DNA of 64,000 bases, from assembly GCA_019637265.1 (NCBI GenBank), contig JAHBVY010000002.1, forward strand, positions 558,001-622,000, in the 5' to 3' direction. This document shows, in pieces, positions 883 through 8,540 of the stretch; position 1 is the stretch's first letter, and every line of letters begins with the position of its first letter. Source of the DNA: Polyangiaceae bacterium (GTDB lineage: Bacteria; Myxococcota_A; Polyangia; Polyangiales; Polyangiaceae). The notes below the pieces were generated by a model. It was not told the origin of the DNA. It did no database searches and saw nothing but the letters and a program-made list of their open reading frames with translations. Made by a program: the position numbers and the translations under genes.

Positions 883-2388
883 ATGAGGTCTCTTACGATG
901 ACTGCTACCTTCCTTCGTCACATCAAGCAGGTGGGGCTGCTCTGCGGAGTCGGCGCCAGCGCCACCCTGGCGTGCAGCGTCTACGACAGCTCGCTCTTGG
1001 TGGAGTCCGATGGGGGCGCCGGTATGTCGGGGGCGAGCGGCAACGCCGGCAACGCGGGCTCAGGGGGCACCGCTGGGTCGGGCGGCACCGCAGGCTCGGG
1101 CGGCACCTCGGGCGCCGGCGGCACCGCGGGCACGGGAGGCACCAGCGACGGCCCGTTCTGGCACGACATGGAGGTGGGCGATCCGCCGCTTTGCCCCACG
1201 GAGAGCCGGCCCGACAAGACCATGCGCCCCAGCGGCACGGACACTGACGAGATCGAGCCGTTCTACGTCGCGTGGACGCGCGCCCGCTTCGGCGCGGTCG
1301 CGGGCATCGACGACTTCACGCCCGATCTGAACGCCTGGAAGGACATCGGCTTCAACCTGGACCGCGCCTGCAACAAGGCGACGTGGCCCGAGGGCGTGCT
1401 CTCGGGCGCCGCGGCGAACGACTGTCCTGCCGCGGGCATCAAGACCTGCACCAACGACTTCCAGAACGTGTTCGATGGCAACTACTGCCGCGACAACGCC
1501 ATCGGCAGGCTCTTCGGCCTCGCCGCCGAGTCGCCCATCTTGGGGCAGCCGTTCCGCCTCACGGAGGCCGACTGGAACTGCGCGATGCACCGCGGGTCGA
1601 TGTCGATCATCTTCAAGGTGAGCAACTACAACGGGCAGCTCAACGACGAGAGCGTCCGCTTGGATATGTATTCGTCAGTGGGGGTGACAGAAGCCGCCTC
1701 GTGGAGGTGCCGTGAGGACGAGAGCAGCGCGTCGCAGCTCACCAGCAACTGGCAGGCGCAGGCGCCGCAGCCGCTCACCAAGCGCTGGCAGTTCCCACGT
1801 AGGGATCTCGATCCGGCGGCGCTCGAGCCCGGCGGCACGCACATCAAGAACTCCAAGTGGGCCGACGCCACCGCTTACGTGCGGAACGGCTGGCTCATCG
1901 CGCAGCTGCCGGCCAACTCGGAGCTGTGGTTCAACGGCCTCAACGCCCACACGCGAGGCATCCGCATGGTCATTCAGAACACGGTGATCGCGGCGAAGCT
2001 CGAGCTGCAACCGAGTGAGCGCTGGTCGGTCAAAGAGGGGGTCATTGGCGGCTCCATCAAGCCAGGCGACATGATCACCGGCTTCCGCAACCTCGGGTTC
2101 TGTGAGAACGCGTGCGACTCCTACTCCACCACCATCGGCTACCTGAACCAGACGATGGACATGCTCTCGGCGAGCAATGATCCGGTCCCGAGCGCCACCT
2201 GCGACGCGCTCAGCTTCGGGATCCAGTTCCGCGGGGAAGAGGTGCGTCCAGGCCCCGTGGTGGATGTCCCGCCGCCGGTGGACTGCCCCGAGCCGCCCGA
2301 GAACGAGGACATCGGTCGCCAAGGCTGCATCTGCCCGCCGCCTGGCTCGGGCGGTCGCTGCGAGCTGCCTGATCCCGACGCAGGCTGA
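883..2388 (+). CDS. Secreted lipoprotein with Gly-rich linker, function unknown
   Basis: The N-terminus has a basic start, a hydrophobic stretch and a lipobox-like ...ATLAC at about residue 31, so it is probably an outer-membrane or surface lipoprotein. Residues about 45-88 are a low-complexity Gly/Thr/Ala/Ser linker (GGTAGSGG-type repeats) common in myxobacterial lipoproteins. The globular part (about 90-470) has several Cys and no family I recognise. The tail is Cys/Pro-rich (CICPPPGSGG). A second ATG at 898 has AGG about 10 bp upstream and is an equally good start. It converges with the lipoprotein at 2482-3516 across a strong hairpin. Confidence 0.8.
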   Translation: MRSLTMTATFLRHIKQVGLLCGVGASATLACSVYDSSLLVESDGGAGMSGASGNAGNAGSGGTAGSGGTAGSGGTSGAGGTAGTGGTSDGPFWHDMEVGDPPLCPTESRPDKTMRPSGTDTDEIEPFYVAWTRARFGAVAGIDDFTPDLNAWKDIGFNLDRACNKATWPEGVLSGAAANDCPAAGIKTCTNDFQNVFDGNYCRDNAIGRLFGLAAESPILGQPFRLTEADWNCAMHRGSMSIIFKVSNYNGQLNDESVRLDMYSSVGVTEAASWRCREDESSASQLTSNWQAQAPQPLTKRWQFPRRDLDPAALEPGGTHIKNSKWADATAYVRNGWLIAQLPANSELWFNGLNAHTRGIRMVIQNTVIAAKLELQPSERWSVKEGVIGGSIKPGDMITGFRNLGFCENACDSYSTTIGYLNQTMDMLSASNDPVPSATCDALSFGIQFRGEEVRPGPVVDVPPPVDCPEPPENEDIGRQGCICPPPGSGGRCELPDPDAG

Positions 2389-2481: not shown

Positions 2482-3516
2482 TCAAGGGCAGTGGTACGAG
2501 CCCAGGTTGGTCAGATCCAGGCTGGGCCCACCGGGCGGCGACGTCCACTCGACGCCTGGGTTGGCGAAGCCGGCGGGGTTCCCGGAGGTGATGCCGCATT
2601 TGCGGAGCAGCGTCTGGTCCTCCGTCTTCAAGCCGCAGCCTTGCCAGCTCCTGGCCGGAGCGGGCGGACCGATGGTGCCGATCACGTCCACGATGGCGCC
2701 GCCGCACTCGAGCGCGATCGCGTCGTTCCCGTTGTAGGTGATGGAGCCTGACGACTGATTGCACGCCGGGCTGACGCTCGAGTTCAGACACATCACGAAG
2801 GTGGCGCCCGTCTCGAAGGTGCCGCCCGTGAGCGTGATGGAGCTGTTGGGCGAGGTCTGGCCGTTCGGGTAGATGAGCAGCTTGCAAGTCGAACGCGTGA
2901 TGGCTGGCCCCGCGTTGTAGATCTCGACCGCCTTCTTCTGCGCGTCCTCCACGTACTCGCTGAAGAACACCCCCGCGGGCCCCGTGCTCGAGCCAGGGTC
3001 GGTGCACACATCGCCGCCGGTGCCGCCGGTGCCAGCAACGCCGCCCGTGCCACCAACACCGCCGACACCGCCCGTGCCACCGACACCACCGGCGCTGCCC
3101 CCCGTACCGCCAGCCGTGCCGCCCACTCCGCCGGTGCCCGCCGCACCACCACTCCCCGAGACGCCAGCCGCACCGGCCACACCGCCGACACCACCCGCCG
3201 CGCCGGCGCCCGCCGCACCGCTAGCGCCGCCCGTACCACCCGCGCCACCCATCGCGCCGCTCGCTCCGGAGCCCGCCGTCGCGCCCGAGCCGCCCGCGCC
3301 GCTGCCAGCCGTTCCCGCCGCGCCGCCATTCCCCGCGGAACCAGCGGCACCCGCGGTGCCACCACCGCCCACGCCGCCCGGCCCTTGAGGCAGCAGATCG
3401 TCGTTCGTCAGCTCCTGCTCCGCACAGGCGCCGGCCAAGAGCCCGAGCAGGCCCAGGCAGGCGAGGCGCGCGACATTCGATGAAGAGAAGCAAGTTCCAG
3501 TCTTGCGAGAACGCAT
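2482..3516 (-). CDS. Lipoprotein with Gly/Ala-rich linker and lamin-tail-like domain
   Basis: I chose the ATG at 3516, which gives 344 aa, because it directly precedes a signal sequence ending in the lipobox LLAGAC. An upstream ATG at 3570 is possible. Residues about 45-170 are a long GGAGG/GTAGTGG-type linker. The C-terminal ~170 residues begin VFFSEYVEDAQKKAVEIYN, the usual start of a lamin-tail (LTD) domain. It continues as a beta-rich module with paired Cys and ends GLKTEDQTLLRK...F.NPGVEW. LTD modules are found on secreted bacterial proteins, so a surface or adhesive role is plausible but unproven. The glycine-rich linker produces a long Pro-rich open frame on the opposite strand that is not a gene. 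Confidence 0.8.
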   Translation of the reverse strand: MRSRKTGTCFSSSNVARLACLGLLGLLAGACAEQELTNDDLLPQGPGGVGGGGTAGAAGSAGNGGAAGTAGSGAGGSGATAGSGASGAMGGAGGTGGASGAAGAGAAGGVGGVAGAAGVSGSGGAAGTGGVGGTAGGTGGSAGGVGGTGGVGGVGGTGGVAGTGGTGGDVCTDPGSSTGPAGVFFSEYVEDAQKKAVEIYNAGPAITRSTCKLLIYPNGQTSPNSSITLTGGTFETGATFVMCLNSSVSPACNQSSGSITYNGNDAIALECGGAIVDVIGTIGPPAPARSWQGCGLKTEDQTLLRKCGITSGNPAGFANPGVEWTSPPGGPSLDLTNLGSYHCP

Positions 3517-3678
3517 GGCCGCGGAGAATAGCAAGCCCACGCCGCTCGCGCCGTGCCAAACCCATGACAAGCGCGGGTCACCCTCGAGCGCCGGCTAAGT
3601 ACACGGATTCACGACGTTAGGCCGGTGGGCCGATCCATTGGCAAAGCCCAGCGCGCAACTCGGGTGCTCAGCGCGCCG

Positions 3679-4347
3679 ATGGAGACGCCCATGAGCGTCG
3701 AGCGTGCGAGCCTCGCCAAACCCCCGAACCCCACCTCGTCTCCGTCGCCCACCCACGCCGGGTCGCGCCCCGACTTCGCCAGCTCCCTCGCGATTCACGG
3801 CGGGCGCACCCCGATGTCCGGCGGTGAGGCCGCGCGTCACTTGGCAACGGCCTGGCAGCAGGTCACGGGGCAACCACCGAGTGAGCGAACGCTGGGCGCG
3901 CTGTGGGCGCAGTGGGCGCTCGAGACCGGGCGCGGCAAGTCGATGCACGGCTACAACTTTGGAGGCCTGAAGGGCGCCGGACCCGAGGGCGGCAGCGCCG
4001 TGCTTCGCACGCGCGAAGGCTTCGGGAGCAGCGAACAGCAGATCAAATCGCGGTTTCGCACCTATTCCACACCGGAACAAGGCGCGCTCGACTACGTGCG
4101 CACGCTCCATGAGCGTTACCCCGAGGCAACACGCGCCGCCGCCGAGGGCAACGCGACGGGCTTCGTCGCGGGGCTCCGCCAGCGCGGCTACTTCACCGGT
4201 GACCCCGCGAGCTACCAGCGCGCCATCGAGAAGCTCAGCGTCGAGCACGCGCGCGGCGCTGACTTCTCTCAGTTGAAAGATCCTGGCCCCCTCGTGGACG
4301 CGCTGCTCCACACCTTGAGCCGCGCCATCTACCGTCGCCGCGCCTGA
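3679..4347 (+). CDS. Glucosaminidase / lysozyme-like protein
   Basis: The region ALWAQWALETGRG...HGYNFGGLKG resembles the catalytic core of FlgJ/LytG-type glucosaminidases (glycoside hydrolase family 73-like), with the Glu in WALETG as candidate general acid. It is followed by the family's F..Y.TPEQGALDYV and GYFTGDPASYQRAI segments. The product would cleave peptidoglycan glycan strands. No signal peptide is visible from this start. Further starts are GTG 3625 and ATG 3691. The N-terminus contains LAKPPNP, encoded by a copy of the G/T-rich motif in C-rich orientation, so the first ~15 residues may be repeat-derived. Confidence 0.65.
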   Translation: METPMSVERASLAKPPNPTSSPSPTHAGSRPDFASSLAIHGGRTPMSGGEAARHLATAWQQVTGQPPSERTLGALWAQWALETGRGKSMHGYNFGGLKGAGPEGGSAVLRTREGFGSSEQQIKSRFRTYSTPEQGALDYVRTLHERYPEATRAAAEGNATGFVAGLRQRGYFTGDPASYQRAIEKLSVEHARGADFSQLKDPGPLVDALLHTLSRAIYRRRA

Positions 4348-4587: not shown

Positions 4588-5928
4588 ATGACTCGACGGG
4601 GCATCACTGGGCGGCGGCGTCTCCTAGGAGCGCTGGGCGCTTCGTGCGCGGCGCTGGTCCTCGCGTGCAGCGGCAACCAAGAGGACGCGCCCAAGCTCTC
4701 CAAGGGCGTGAGCGACGCCATCCCTGACGTCCCGGTCCCCGCGGCGGATGGGCCGAAGCTCGGAGCCGTCAGCTACATTACCCAGGTGCTCGATCGCCCT
4801 TCGAAGGGCGGTGAGCTGCTGGGGGAGCTGCGCGCTGGCTCACTGGTGGCGCGCGCCGGGGAGCCGTACTCGAAGGACGGCTGTGAAGGCGGCTGGTACC
4901 CGGTGCGCCCGCGAGGCTTCGTGTGCGCGACGGAGAACGCCACGATCGATCTCGAGCACCCCACCTTGATCGCGATGGCGCAGCAGCCCGACCGCGAGGC
5001 CCCGCTGCCCTACACCTACGCGCGCACCGGGCAGACGACGCCCATCTACGCGCGGGATCCGAAGAATGACCACGCGGTGGTGGAGGTGGGGAAAATCCGC
5101 GGGCGGAGCGGGCTCGCCATCGTTGGCTCCTGGACGGCCACCGACCCCGAGGGCAACTCACAGCGCCTAGGCATGATGACTGACGGTCGCTTCGTACGCG
5201 CGACTGACTTGAAGAAGGCGGAGCACACGAGTTTCAAGGGCGTGGACCTGACCCAAACCGAGCTGCCCGTCGCCTTCGTCGTCAAGCAAGGGGTGCGCGC
5301 CTGGCAGGTGGAGAAGGGCGAGGCCGAGAAGCAGGGGAAGCTCGAGTACCACCAGACCATCCCGCTCACCGGGAAATTCCGCGACGTGAATGGACTGCGC
5401 TACTGGGCCACCGCCGACGACCGCTACGTGCGGCACCGCGACGTGACGGTGGTGCGCCAGCGCAGCACCTTCCCCGATTTCGCGCAGGGCGAGACGCGCT
5501 GGATCGACATCAGCATCGTGACCGGCACCCTGGTGCTCTACGAGGGCACCAAGCCCGTCTACACCACCCTCGTGAGCGTCGGGCGCAACCGCCTGGATGA
5601 CTCGGGCGACGCCGTCACGCGCCGCGGCACTTTCAAGGTGACGGCCAAGTACATCACGGCGACGCACATCGACCCCACCAAGGTGGAGCAGTATTGGGAC
5701 GTGTACGACACCCCCTGGGTGTTGGAGCTCGACTCCGGGCAGCGCCTCCACGGCGCCTTCTGGCACAGCCGCTTCGGCATCGAGCACACTGGTGGTGACG
5801 TGCACCTCACGCCGGCGGACGCGGCCCACGTGTTCCGCTGGGTGACGGCGGAGGTCCCCGACGGCTGGAACGCGCTGAAGCGCTGGCCCGACGGGGTGGA
5901 TCCGGTGCAGGTCGTGATCCGGAAGTAG
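4588..5928 (+). CDS. Lipoprotein with SH3-like and degenerate L,D-transpeptidase (YkuD) domain
   Basis: The signal sequence contains a twin-Arg stretch and a lipobox ALVLAC near residue 27. Residues about 55-115 look like a bacterial SH3 module (ELRAGSLVARAGEPY...GWYPVRPRGFV). The C-terminal ~150 residues have the YkuD layout: WIDISIVTGTLVLYEG, RRGTFKVTAKY, LHGAFWHSRFG, then TPADAAHVFRW. The canonical catalytic block SHGCVNL reads TGGDVHL here, so the nucleophilic Cys and the motif His are both missing. The fold is therefore probably kept without peptidoglycan transpeptidase activity. Binding of peptidoglycan, or another chemistry, is possible. Length 446 aa, with no frameshift. Confidence 0.85.
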   Translation: MTRRGITGRRRLLGALGASCAALVLACSGNQEDAPKLSKGVSDAIPDVPVPAADGPKLGAVSYITQVLDRPSKGGELLGELRAGSLVARAGEPYSKDGCEGGWYPVRPRGFVCATENATIDLEHPTLIAMAQQPDREAPLPYTYARTGQTTPIYARDPKNDHAVVEVGKIRGRSGLAIVGSWTATDPEGNSQRLGMMTDGRFVRATDLKKAEHTSFKGVDLTQTELPVAFVVKQGVRAWQVEKGEAEKQGKLEYHQTIPLTGKFRDVNGLRYWATADDRYVRHRDVTVVRQRSTFPDFAQGETRWIDISIVTGTLVLYEGTKPVYTTLVSVGRNRLDDSGDAVTRRGTFKVTAKYITATHIDPTKVEQYWDVYDTPWVLELDSGQRLHGAFWHSRFGIEHTGGDVHLTPADAAHVFRWVTAEVPDGWNALKRWPDGVDPVQVVIRK

Positions 5929-7064: not shown

Positions 7065-8540
7065 ATGCACGTGCACGTGGTCGCGGCGTCGGGCACTGGG
7101 ATGGGCTCCTTGGCGGGCCTGCTCCGAGAGTTGGGGCATCGGGTGACGGGCAGCGACGTCCGCTTCGATCCGCCCATCGGCCCAGCGCTCGCCGAGTGGG
7201 GCGTGGAGTGCCAAACCGGCTTCGACCCAGCGCACCTCGACCCGCCGCCCGACCTGGTCGTCGTCGGTAACGTCTGTCGCCCTGACAACCCAGAGGCACG
7301 CGCCGCGATCGAGGGGGGGTTGGCGGTGACCCACATCGCCGGCGCGCTGGCGCGCTTCGCGCTCGAAGGCACGCGGCCCTTGGTGGTCGCTGGCACCCAC
7401 GGCAAGACCACCACCACCTCACTCTCCGCGTGGCTCCTCGATCAAGCGGGCCTCGAGCCAGGCTTCCTGGTGGGTGGTGTCCCCAGGAACTTCGGCAAGA
7501 GCTTCCGCGCGGCGCGCCCGCGCCGGAGCTTGCCCCAGGCGGCAGAGGCTGAGCTCACCCCGGTGAGCCAGGAGCGCCGTCCGCCATTCGTCATTGAAGG
7601 TGACGAGTACGACACGGCCTTCTTCGAGAAGACCGCCAAGTTCCTGCATTACCGTGCAGAAATTGCCATCCTCACCTCGATCGAGCACGACCACATCGAC
7701 ATCTACCCCACGCCCGAGGCCTACTTTCAGGCCTTCGAGCAGTTCATCGCGGGGCTACCCGCGGAGGGTCTCTTGGTGGCGAACGCAGCCGACCCGGAGG
7801 TGGTGCGGCTCGCGTCGCGACACGCGCGCTGCCCCGTCGCCTGGTACGCGCTCGAGGGGCAAGACACCCACGGCGTCGCGCCGCACTGGCTCGGCGCGCT
7901 CGCCACCGCGGGCGCGGACGGCACGAGCTTCGACTTGTTCGCTGGCGGCGTAGCGGTCGGCCGCATCGCTTCACCGCTGCCTGGCCTCCACAACCTCGCG
8001 AACACCGTCGCCGCGCTGGGCGCCGCCGCCCAAGGTTACGGCGCGCGCTTCGAGCGCCTGATCCCGGCGCTCGCGGCGTTCCAAGGCATCAAGCGCCGGC
8101 AAGAGCTGCTCGGCAGCCCCGGCGGCCACCCGGTGTACGACGACTTCGCGCATCACCCCACCGCGGTGCGTGAGACGCTGGCGGCGCTCAGGAACAAACA
8201 CCCCAAGGTGCCGCTGATCGCCGTGTTCGAGCCCCGCAGCGCCACCGCCTGCCGCGCGCTGCACCAAGACGCCTACGCCACCTCGTTCGGTGACGCGAGC
8301 CGCGTGATCCTCGCGCCGCTCGGCCGTGATCTGCCGCCCGCCGAGGCGCTGGATACCGTACGCTTGGCAGACGAGCTCACGCGCCGGGGCACCCCAGCGC
8401 ACGCCGCCCAGAGCCTGCCGGAGGTGCTGGAGCTGGTGGAGCGCCACGCCACCGATGGCAGCGTGATCGCGCTGCTCTCCAACGGCGCCTTCGGGGGCCT
8501 CCACGGGCAGGTGCTGGAGGCGCTCGGCGAGGTGCGCTGA
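7065..8540 (+). CDS. mpl: UDP-N-acetylmuramate:L-Ala-gamma-D-Glu-meso-DAP ligase
   Basis: Recycles the murein tripeptide onto UDP-MurNAc. This fits a diderm with meso-DAP peptidoglycan. The Mur-ligase Rossmann start is HVVAASGTGMGSLAGLLRELG, the ATP P-loop is VAGTHGKTTTTSL (about 108-120), and the Mpl-typical central segments are VIEGDEYDTAFFEKTAKFLHY and SIEHDHIDIYP. The C-terminal domain has YDDFAHHPTAVRETL and FEPRSATACR. Length 491 aa, slightly above the usual ~450-460 because of a short insert near residues 150-170. ATG start at 7065. Confidence 0.93.
   Translation: MHVHVVAASGTGMGSLAGLLRELGHRVTGSDVRFDPPIGPALAEWGVECQTGFDPAHLDPPPDLVVVGNVCRPDNPEARAAIEGGLAVTHIAGALARFALEGTRPLVVAGTHGKTTTTSLSAWLLDQAGLEPGFLVGGVPRNFGKSFRAARPRRSLPQAAEAELTPVSQERRPPFVIEGDEYDTAFFEKTAKFLHYRAEIAILTSIEHDHIDIYPTPEAYFQAFEQFIAGLPAEGLLVANAADPEVVRLASRHARCPVAWYALEGQDTHGVAPHWLGALATAGADGTSFDLFAGGVAVGRIASPLPGLHNLANTVAALGAAAQGYGARFERLIPALAAFQGIKRRQELLGSPGGHPVYDDFAHHPTAVRETLAALRNKHPKVPLIAVFEPRSATACRALHQDAYATSFGDASRVILAPLGRDLPPAEALDTVRLADELTRRGTPAHAAQSLPEVLELVERHATDGSVIALLSNGAFGGLHGQVLEALGEVR

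What the first reader, a model, noticed from the sequence alone, without database searches (positions are those of the whole stretch)
4588..5928. L,D-transpeptidase-fold lipoprotein lacking the catalytic Cys and His
The YkuD block aligns through LHGAFWHSRFG and TPADA, but SHGCVNL has become TGGDVHL. The gene is otherwise full length and undamaged, so it is a pseudoenzyme or has a changed chemistry. An Asp at the Cys position and the preserved distal His make an altered hydrolase conceivable.
Basis: seen in the sequence. Interest (0 to 1): 0.55.

Follow-up and report, generated by a model that had tools for sequence, protein, structure and literature searches.

The report
Conserved dead cell-wall transpeptidase lipoprotein
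This gene encodes an intact, probably lipid-anchored protein with the fold of a cell-wall cross-linking enzyme but without its catalytic residues, and related myxobacteria keep it that way, so it probably works by binding rather than by chemistry.

Summary
The 446-aa ORF at 4588-5928 is intact, carries a Pfam YkuD domain above cut-off, and has TGGD (residues 401-404) where active L,D-transpeptidases have SHGC. It is not a local mutation. In 30 of 30 readable clade-A members (the window gene and its orthologs) the Cys and adjacent His are gone; in a sister clade B the Cys is gone in 27 of 27. The genome's 12 other YkuD genes all keep (S)xGC. With the motif columns left out, A+B form one clade nested among active paralogs. 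In the genomes sampled both occur only in the window's family (probably Polyangiaceae), never together. Clade A is under purifying selection and is predicted to fold as YkuD (pLDDT 92, Z 15.7 to a solved L,D-transpeptidase).

The "altered Asp hydrolase" reading fails: Asp is in only 7 of 30 clade-A members, and the former catalytic positions 402 and 404 are among the most variable sites, while the loop around them stays conserved. Best reading: a non-catalytic YkuD-fold lipoprotein that binds peptidoglycan or an active L,D-transpeptidase, like the degenerate LytM lipoproteins NlpD and ActS in logic. The partner is inferred, not shown. Closest precedent: the Cys-less second YkuD domain of Pseudomonas LdtPae1.

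The parts
4588..5928 (+). gene for the Cys-less YkuD-fold lipoprotein, 446 aa (clade A)
   Evidence: ORF and translation; YkuD domain; 31 clade-A genomes
4588..4668 (+). signal peptide and lipobox-like LVLAC ending at Cys27
   Evidence: read from sequence; Cys in all 28 of 29 aligned clade-A members that reach this far and in 10 of 10 aligned clade-B members
4756..4926 (+). first small beta domain, SH3-like by inference, with conserved Cys99 and Cys113 (possible disulfide)
   Evidence: strands in the model; C113 invariant, C99 at 90% or more in clade A; Pfam SH3_3 weakly hits 7 of 35 aligned members, best E 0.01, not this protein
5014..5217 (+). second small beta domain (model residues 117-184)
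   Evidence: DSSP of the model; fold not identified
5269..5454 (+). third small beta domain (model residues 202-263)
   Evidence: DSSP of the model; fold not identified
5479..5925 (+). YkuD-fold domain
   Evidence: Pfam residues 304-420; model residues 272-420 align to 4xvo_A, Z 15.7, rmsd 2.3, 122 residues
5749..5751 (+). H388, the upstream His of the active family (kept here, lost in 11 of 30 readable clade-A members)
5764..5799 (+). loop HSRFGIEHTGGD: conserved rim (H393, R395, F396, G397, E399, G403) around degenerate positions 402 and 404
   Evidence: per-site conservation
5788..5799 (+). TGGD at the place of the catalytic SHGC motif

Best explanation
It is a YkuD-fold pseudoenzyme, probably an outer-membrane lipoprotein. 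An ancestor in the window's family was an active SHGC L,D-transpeptidase that lost the nucleophile before clades A and B parted; the product was kept. The fold and the loop around the dead pocket are maintained for binding. Most likely role: a non-catalytic periplasmic adaptor, anchored by its lipid, with small beta domains as spacer, whose YkuD domain holds a peptidoglycan stem peptide and/or an active L,D-transpeptidase paralog and so regulates or positions cross-linking. Shown here: intact gene, conserved loss of catalytic residues, one-clade origin, purifying selection, confident fold prediction. Inferred: lipidation, location, absence of activity, ligand or partner, regulatory effect.
For: Cys lost in 30/30 readable clade-A and 27/27 clade-B members, kept in 22/22 readable active relatives and in the 12 other YkuD genes of the genome. 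A+B one clade with motif columns excluded, support 100/99; splitting A from B rejected, AU p 8.8e-5 and 7.2e-4. dN/dS of the YkuD domain 0.03-0.29 in 7 clade-A pairs (three of them share members) and 0.06-0.13 in 4 clade-B pairs. pLDDT 92.3, Z up to 15.7 to L,D-transpeptidases. Positions 402 and 404 at the 91st and 87th percentile of variability; 393, 395-397, 399 and 403 among the most conserved fifth or so. A Cys-bearing L002-type paralog was read in 26 of the 28 clade-A genomes of the family sample, so a candidate active partner is usually present. Precedents in print: dead second YkuD domain of LdtPae1; LdtJ C390S still supports growth and shape; NlpD and ActS.
Against: No ligand, partner or activity was measured. 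No dedicated partner gene sits beside it: recurrent neighbours are housekeeping genes, mpl in 9 and metF in 7 of 18 clade-A loci. 43 of 98 sampled genomes of the family have neither A nor B at the thresholds used, including complete ones, and G077 lacks B while five genus-mates have it, so the gene is dispensable. The L002-type paralog also occurs in genomes without A, so its co-occurrence is weak evidence. Pocket geometry was not examined (no model coordinates). The clade-B model was poor.
Confidence: 0.6

Rival explanations
1. Altered hydrolase: Asp404 with the retained upstream His carries out a new hydrolytic reaction.
For: In this protein D404 and H388 are both present, and its genus-mate has TNGD with the same His.
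Against: Asp in only 7 of 30 readable clade-A members, Asn 11, the rest mixed; H388 lost in 11 of 30; positions 402 and 404 are among the most variable sites.
Confidence: 0.04
2. Different chemistry from other conserved polar residues near the loop (H393, R395, E399, D411, H428 in clade A).
For: H393 28/30, R395 29/30, E399 27/30, D411 30/30, H428 27/30 in clade A; E399 is specific to clade A.
Against: H393, D411 and H428 are also conserved in the active relatives (100%, 95%, 82%), so they need no new role; clade B has H393 in only 2 of 27 and does not conserve R395.
Confidence: 0.12
3. Local mutation, assembly error or decaying pseudogene.
For: Loss of a catalytic motif is what decay would give.
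Against: Same loss in 30/30 readable clade-A members; no stops inside any listed match; dN/dS well under 1.
Confidence: 0.01
4. Purely structural: a lipoprotein whose dead YkuD and small beta domains tether the outer membrane to peptidoglycan non-covalently, without regulating any enzyme.
For: Lipobox and small beta domains; retained fold; peptidoglycan binding was suggested for LdtPae1's dead domain.
Against: Patchy presence in the family; nothing here separates it from the regulator reading.
Confidence: 0.23

Closest known systems
YkuD-family L,D-transpeptidases (Pfam PF03734), e.g. LdtMt1/LdtMt2
   Same: Domain above the Pfam cut-off; predicted fold matches solved L,D-transpeptidases, Z 12-16 in the 50 rows shown
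   Different: No (S/T)xGC motif, no Cys nucleophile; upstream His not conserved across the clade
LdtPae1 second YkuD domain (LdtPae11), Pseudomonas aeruginosa
   Same: [quoted passage not shown] authors suggest peptidoglycan binding (PMC10434034: passages, and section 14 in full)
   Different: There the dead domain follows an active one in the same protein; here it is a stand-alone lipoprotein and a conserved clade
DpaA / LdtF (YafK), Escherichia coli
   Same: Divergent YkuD protein once proposed to stimulate LdtD and LdtE (PMC6428754, passages)
   Different: DpaA keeps the Cys and proved to be an amidase that detaches Lpp (PMC8263019, passages)
Degenerate LytM lipoproteins NlpD and ActS, Escherichia coli
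   Same: Logic: outer-membrane lipoprotein with a dead peptidoglycan-enzyme fold that activates active enzymes (PMC8360153, passages)
   Different: Unrelated fold; activation of an enzyme has not been tested for the window protein

Membership tests
YkuD fold family (PF03734) | profile match over the curated cut-off | tested here: met
   43.9 bits against 23.4
YkuD fold family (PF03734) | YkuD fold | tested here: met
   model pLDDT 92.3; Z 15.7, rmsd 2.3 over 122 residues to 4xvo_A; a prediction, not a solved structure
L,D-transpeptidase (active enzyme) | (S/T)xGC motif with Cys nucleophile | tested here: not met
   TGGD; Cys in 0 of 30 readable clade-A members
L,D-transpeptidase (active enzyme) | conserved upstream His (role as catalytic base recalled) | tested here: inconclusive
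   H388 present in the window protein, but in only 19 of 30 readable clade-A and 1 of 27 clade-B members
L,D-transpeptidase (active enzyme) | 3-3 cross-linking, carboxypeptidase or protein-anchoring activity | not testable with these tools
   needs purified protein and muropeptide analysis
LdtPae1-type tandem YkuD protein | active YkuD domain followed by a dead one | tested here: not met
   one YkuD match only in this protein
Outer-membrane lipoprotein regulator (NlpD/ActS-like role) | lipidated, outer-membrane located | tested here: inconclusive
   lipobox-like sequence with conserved Cys; location not testable
Outer-membrane lipoprotein regulator (NlpD/ActS-like role) | stimulates an active peptidoglycan enzyme | not testable with these tools
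   no partner known

The most novel reading that the evidence does not exclude
A dead L,D-transpeptidase lipoprotein lineage arose in this bacterial family and split into two forms, each with its own remodelled pocket signature (A: WHDRFG[IV]EHGxG; B: GEAxxFH[ADN], with a His invariant in 27 of 27), acting as dedicated regulators of active L,D-transpeptidases: the transpeptidase counterpart of degenerate LytM activators.
Probability: 0.3. Interest if true: 0.65.

Novelty: new variant of a known kind. Interest (0 to 1): 0.42.

Why it matters
Dead-enzyme regulators are known for peptidoglycan amidases but, in the literature searched here, not for L,D-transpeptidases, where the only natural Cys-less case met was a tandem domain of undetermined role. 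A stand-alone, conserved, dead L,D-transpeptidase lipoprotein beside 12 Cys-bearing paralogs in one genome gives a natural test of what the fold does without catalysis, a question also raised by the C390S mutant of Acinetobacter LdtJ, which still supports growth and shape.

Tried and rejected
Asp hydrolase: rejected, because neither Asp404 nor H388 is conserved. Decay or sequencing error: rejected by the orthologs, open frames and dN/dS.

Independent losses in A and B: disfavoured, since trees that split A from B are rejected. But loss of the Cys is not unique to A+B: one L002-type paralog in another genome (L172, G052) reads PDGS with Ser at the Cys position; I did not follow it, and it may be an error of a draft genome.

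Same locus for A and B: not supported. Of 12 clade-B genomes searched, 11 gave mpl, always on another contig or megabases from the B gene (on drafts another contig does not prove distance). Relocation, or ancient duplication with reciprocal loss, remain open.

N-terminal domains as internal repeats: hhalign of three sub-alignments gave probabilities of 7% or less, so SH3-like is an inference. No sequence match to solved structures by phmmer or profile. Foldseek's first row was not an L,D-transpeptidase but an integrative model of YrvJ-YacD with TM-score 0.16; the other 49 rows shown are L,D-transpeptidases or YkuD. The clade-B model is unusable (pLDDT 52). NCBIfam gave nothing for this protein up to E 1. 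misread minus-strand loci and was replaced; its results are not used.

Dropped rows: L014, L020 and L021 (same contigs as L011, L013 and L012), L083 (same gene as L042), L007 (same gene as L002); L033 and L132 are cut off before the motif and were not counted as readable.

The draft also said that all of clade B lacks the adjacent His; one of 27 has His at position 402, now mended.

The not-in-print statement rests on searches of the open PMC library only; subscription papers and preprints were not searched.

Full report
What is there. The ORF at 4588-5928 on the + strand encodes 446 residues with no internal stop. Pfam finds YkuD at residues 304-420, 43.9 bits against a cut-off of 23.4. The sequence has a signal peptide and a lipobox-like LVLAC, and TGGD at residues 401-404 where active members have SHGC. 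Small correction: H388 (LHG), the other conserved His of the family, is still there in this protein.

Is it local? No. In a sample of 98 genomes of the window's family, 27 have a homolog at E 2.4e-86 or better, and one more (G018) has a partial copy whose motif region is clade-A like. An order-wide search of 183 genomes added three (G168-G170), so 31 clade-A genomes were seen, the window's own included. The site can be read in 30; the copy in G036 (L033) runs off its contig. In 30 of 30 the Cys is absent: Asn 11, Asp 7, Gln 3, Ala 3, Thr 2, and Ser, Gly, Arg, His one each. The His of SHGC is absent in all 30; the upstream His is kept in 19. The nearest neighbour, from the same genus, reads TNGD at 73-75% protein identity.

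A second Cys-less group. The next-best hits in other genera of the family also lack the Cys: in place of SHGC they have [GTNSMQ][FYH]H[ADN], with His at position 403 in 27 of 27; one of the 27 also has His at 402. I call this clade B. It was found in 27 of the 98 genomes (G069 partial), and all 27 were read. No sampled genome had both A (28) and B (27); 43 had neither at these thresholds. To check this, the best clade-B-query hits in the clade-A genomes were read: they are L002-type genes with Cys, not clade B, except G062, whose copy is cut off before the motif, and G022, which had no hit at 1e-75. Searches of 317 genomes of the class found A and B only in the window's family (in one search the hit in the window's own genome is the active L002 gene), and a sample of 377 genomes of the phylum found A only there. 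These searches had strict thresholds and scored only the best few candidates per genome, so more distant Cys-less proteins elsewhere are not excluded. The family is probably Polyangiaceae: a contig of one member has the same length and match as a record titled Polyangiaceae bacterium; this naming is an inference.

Active relatives. The window's genome has 13 YkuD genes over the Pfam cut-off. The 12 others all keep the Cys: seven SHGC, two SGGC, three SAGC. Of 23 active relatives in the comparison 22 have the site readable, and all 22 have Cys. Of 34 further relatives read at the end, 33 are readable and 32 have Cys; the exception, L172 in G052, has PDGS. So Cys loss also occurs once outside A+B in what I read, as an isolated case.

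Origin. A tree of 59 proteins (29 A, 13 B, 17 active), with the motif and upstream-His columns left out and rooted on the SGGC/SAGC paralogs, makes A one clade (100/100), B one clade (99/94) and A+B one clade (100/99), nested among SHGC paralogs. Trees that put B or A with the neighbouring active group are rejected (AU p 8.8e-5 and 7.2e-4). One loss before A and B parted is the simplest reading.

Selection and fold. Pairwise Nei-Gojobori dN/dS of the YkuD domain is 0.03-0.29 in seven clade-A pairs (not all independent) and 0.06-0.13 in four clade-B pairs, against 0.10 in one active pair. AlphaFold2 with 35 aligned homologs gives pLDDT 92.3 and pTM 0.89. Model residues 272-420 match solved L,D-transpeptidases, best 4xvo_A, Z 15.7, rmsd 2.3, 122 residues. 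Foldseek's rows 2-50 are L,D-transpeptidases or YkuD; its row 1 is an unrelated integrative model with TM-score 0.16. Upstream lie three small beta domains by strand pattern; SH3-like is an inference (weak SH3_3 hits in 7 of 35 members, not this one), and a test for internal repeats found none.

What the sites say. Within clade A the former catalytic positions drift: 402 is at the 91st and 404 at the 87th percentile of variability in the domain, 406 at the 70th, 388 at the 58th. The loop that carries them is conserved: H393 (17th), R395, F396 and G397 (10th), E399 (22nd), G403 (14th). A catalytic replacement at 404 should be conserved; it is not. A binding or structural loop would look like this. 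In clade B the pattern differs (G397 and H403 invariant, E398 26 of 27), so the two clades remodelled the dead site in different ways.

Context. In 18 clade-A loci, a Mur-ligase gene that fits mpl best (below that model's own cut-off) lies within the fetched stretch in 9, and metF in 7 (an eighth metF row, L052, overlaps mpl on the other strand and was not counted). Other recurrent neighbours, named from one representative each, are PrmC, a prepilin peptidase, a phosphomannomutase-type enzyme and a Clp ATPase. This is housekeeping synteny, evidence of vertical inheritance rather than of a partner. The glucosaminidase gene just upstream in the window (3625-4347) recurs in 1 of the 18. A Cys-bearing L002-type paralog was read in 26 of the 28 clade-A genomes of the sample; it also occurs in genomes without A, so this names a candidate partner and no more.

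How it probably works. Non-catalytic adaptor: lipid anchor, small beta domains, and a YkuD domain that binds without reacting. Shown: intact, conserved, selected, folded (predicted), no catalytic Cys. Inferred: location, inactivity, ligand, effect. Precedents: the dead second YkuD domain of LdtPae1 (section 14 of PMC10434034); LdtF/YafK once proposed to stimulate LdtD and LdtE (passages of PMC6428754), later shown to be an amidase with its Cys (passages of PMC8263019); a C390S LdtJ that still supports growth and shape (passages of PMC12548408); NlpD and ActS (passages of PMC8360153). Of a 2025 review of L,D-transpeptidases I saw 12 of 19 matching passages, and these mention no naturally dead L,D-transpeptidase (PMC12729407).

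Verdict. A real, conserved YkuD-fold pseudoenzyme group confined, as far as sampled, to one bacterial family. It belongs to the YkuD fold family but should not be called an L,D-transpeptidase. The altered-hydrolase idea is not supported. Interest is moderate: dead-enzyme cell-wall regulators are known in principle, but a stand-alone dead L,D-transpeptidase lineage was not found in the literature searched.

Noticed in passing
G000 loci L009, L010, L067, L068, L069: Five of the genome's YkuD paralogs keep the Cys but have SGGC or SAGC instead of SHGC; they group together in the tree and were used to root it.
   Followed up: partly
L041 and 26 other clade-B members: Sister Cys-less clade with a His invariant at the Gly position of SHGC and a Glu just after the loop Gly; possible new ligand site.
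   Followed up: partly
L172, genome G052: An L002-type paralog reads PDGS in place of SHGC, with Ser at the Cys position: a possible separate loss, or a draft-genome error.
   Followed up: no
window 2482-3570 (-) and 883-2388 (+): Two secreted-looking proteins with Gly/Ala/Ser-rich low-complexity stretches after a hydrophobic N-terminus.
   Followed up: no
window 7065-8540 (+): Mur ligase near the gene; best NCBIfam hit is mpl (333.3 bits), below that model's cut-off of 388.7.
   Followed up: no
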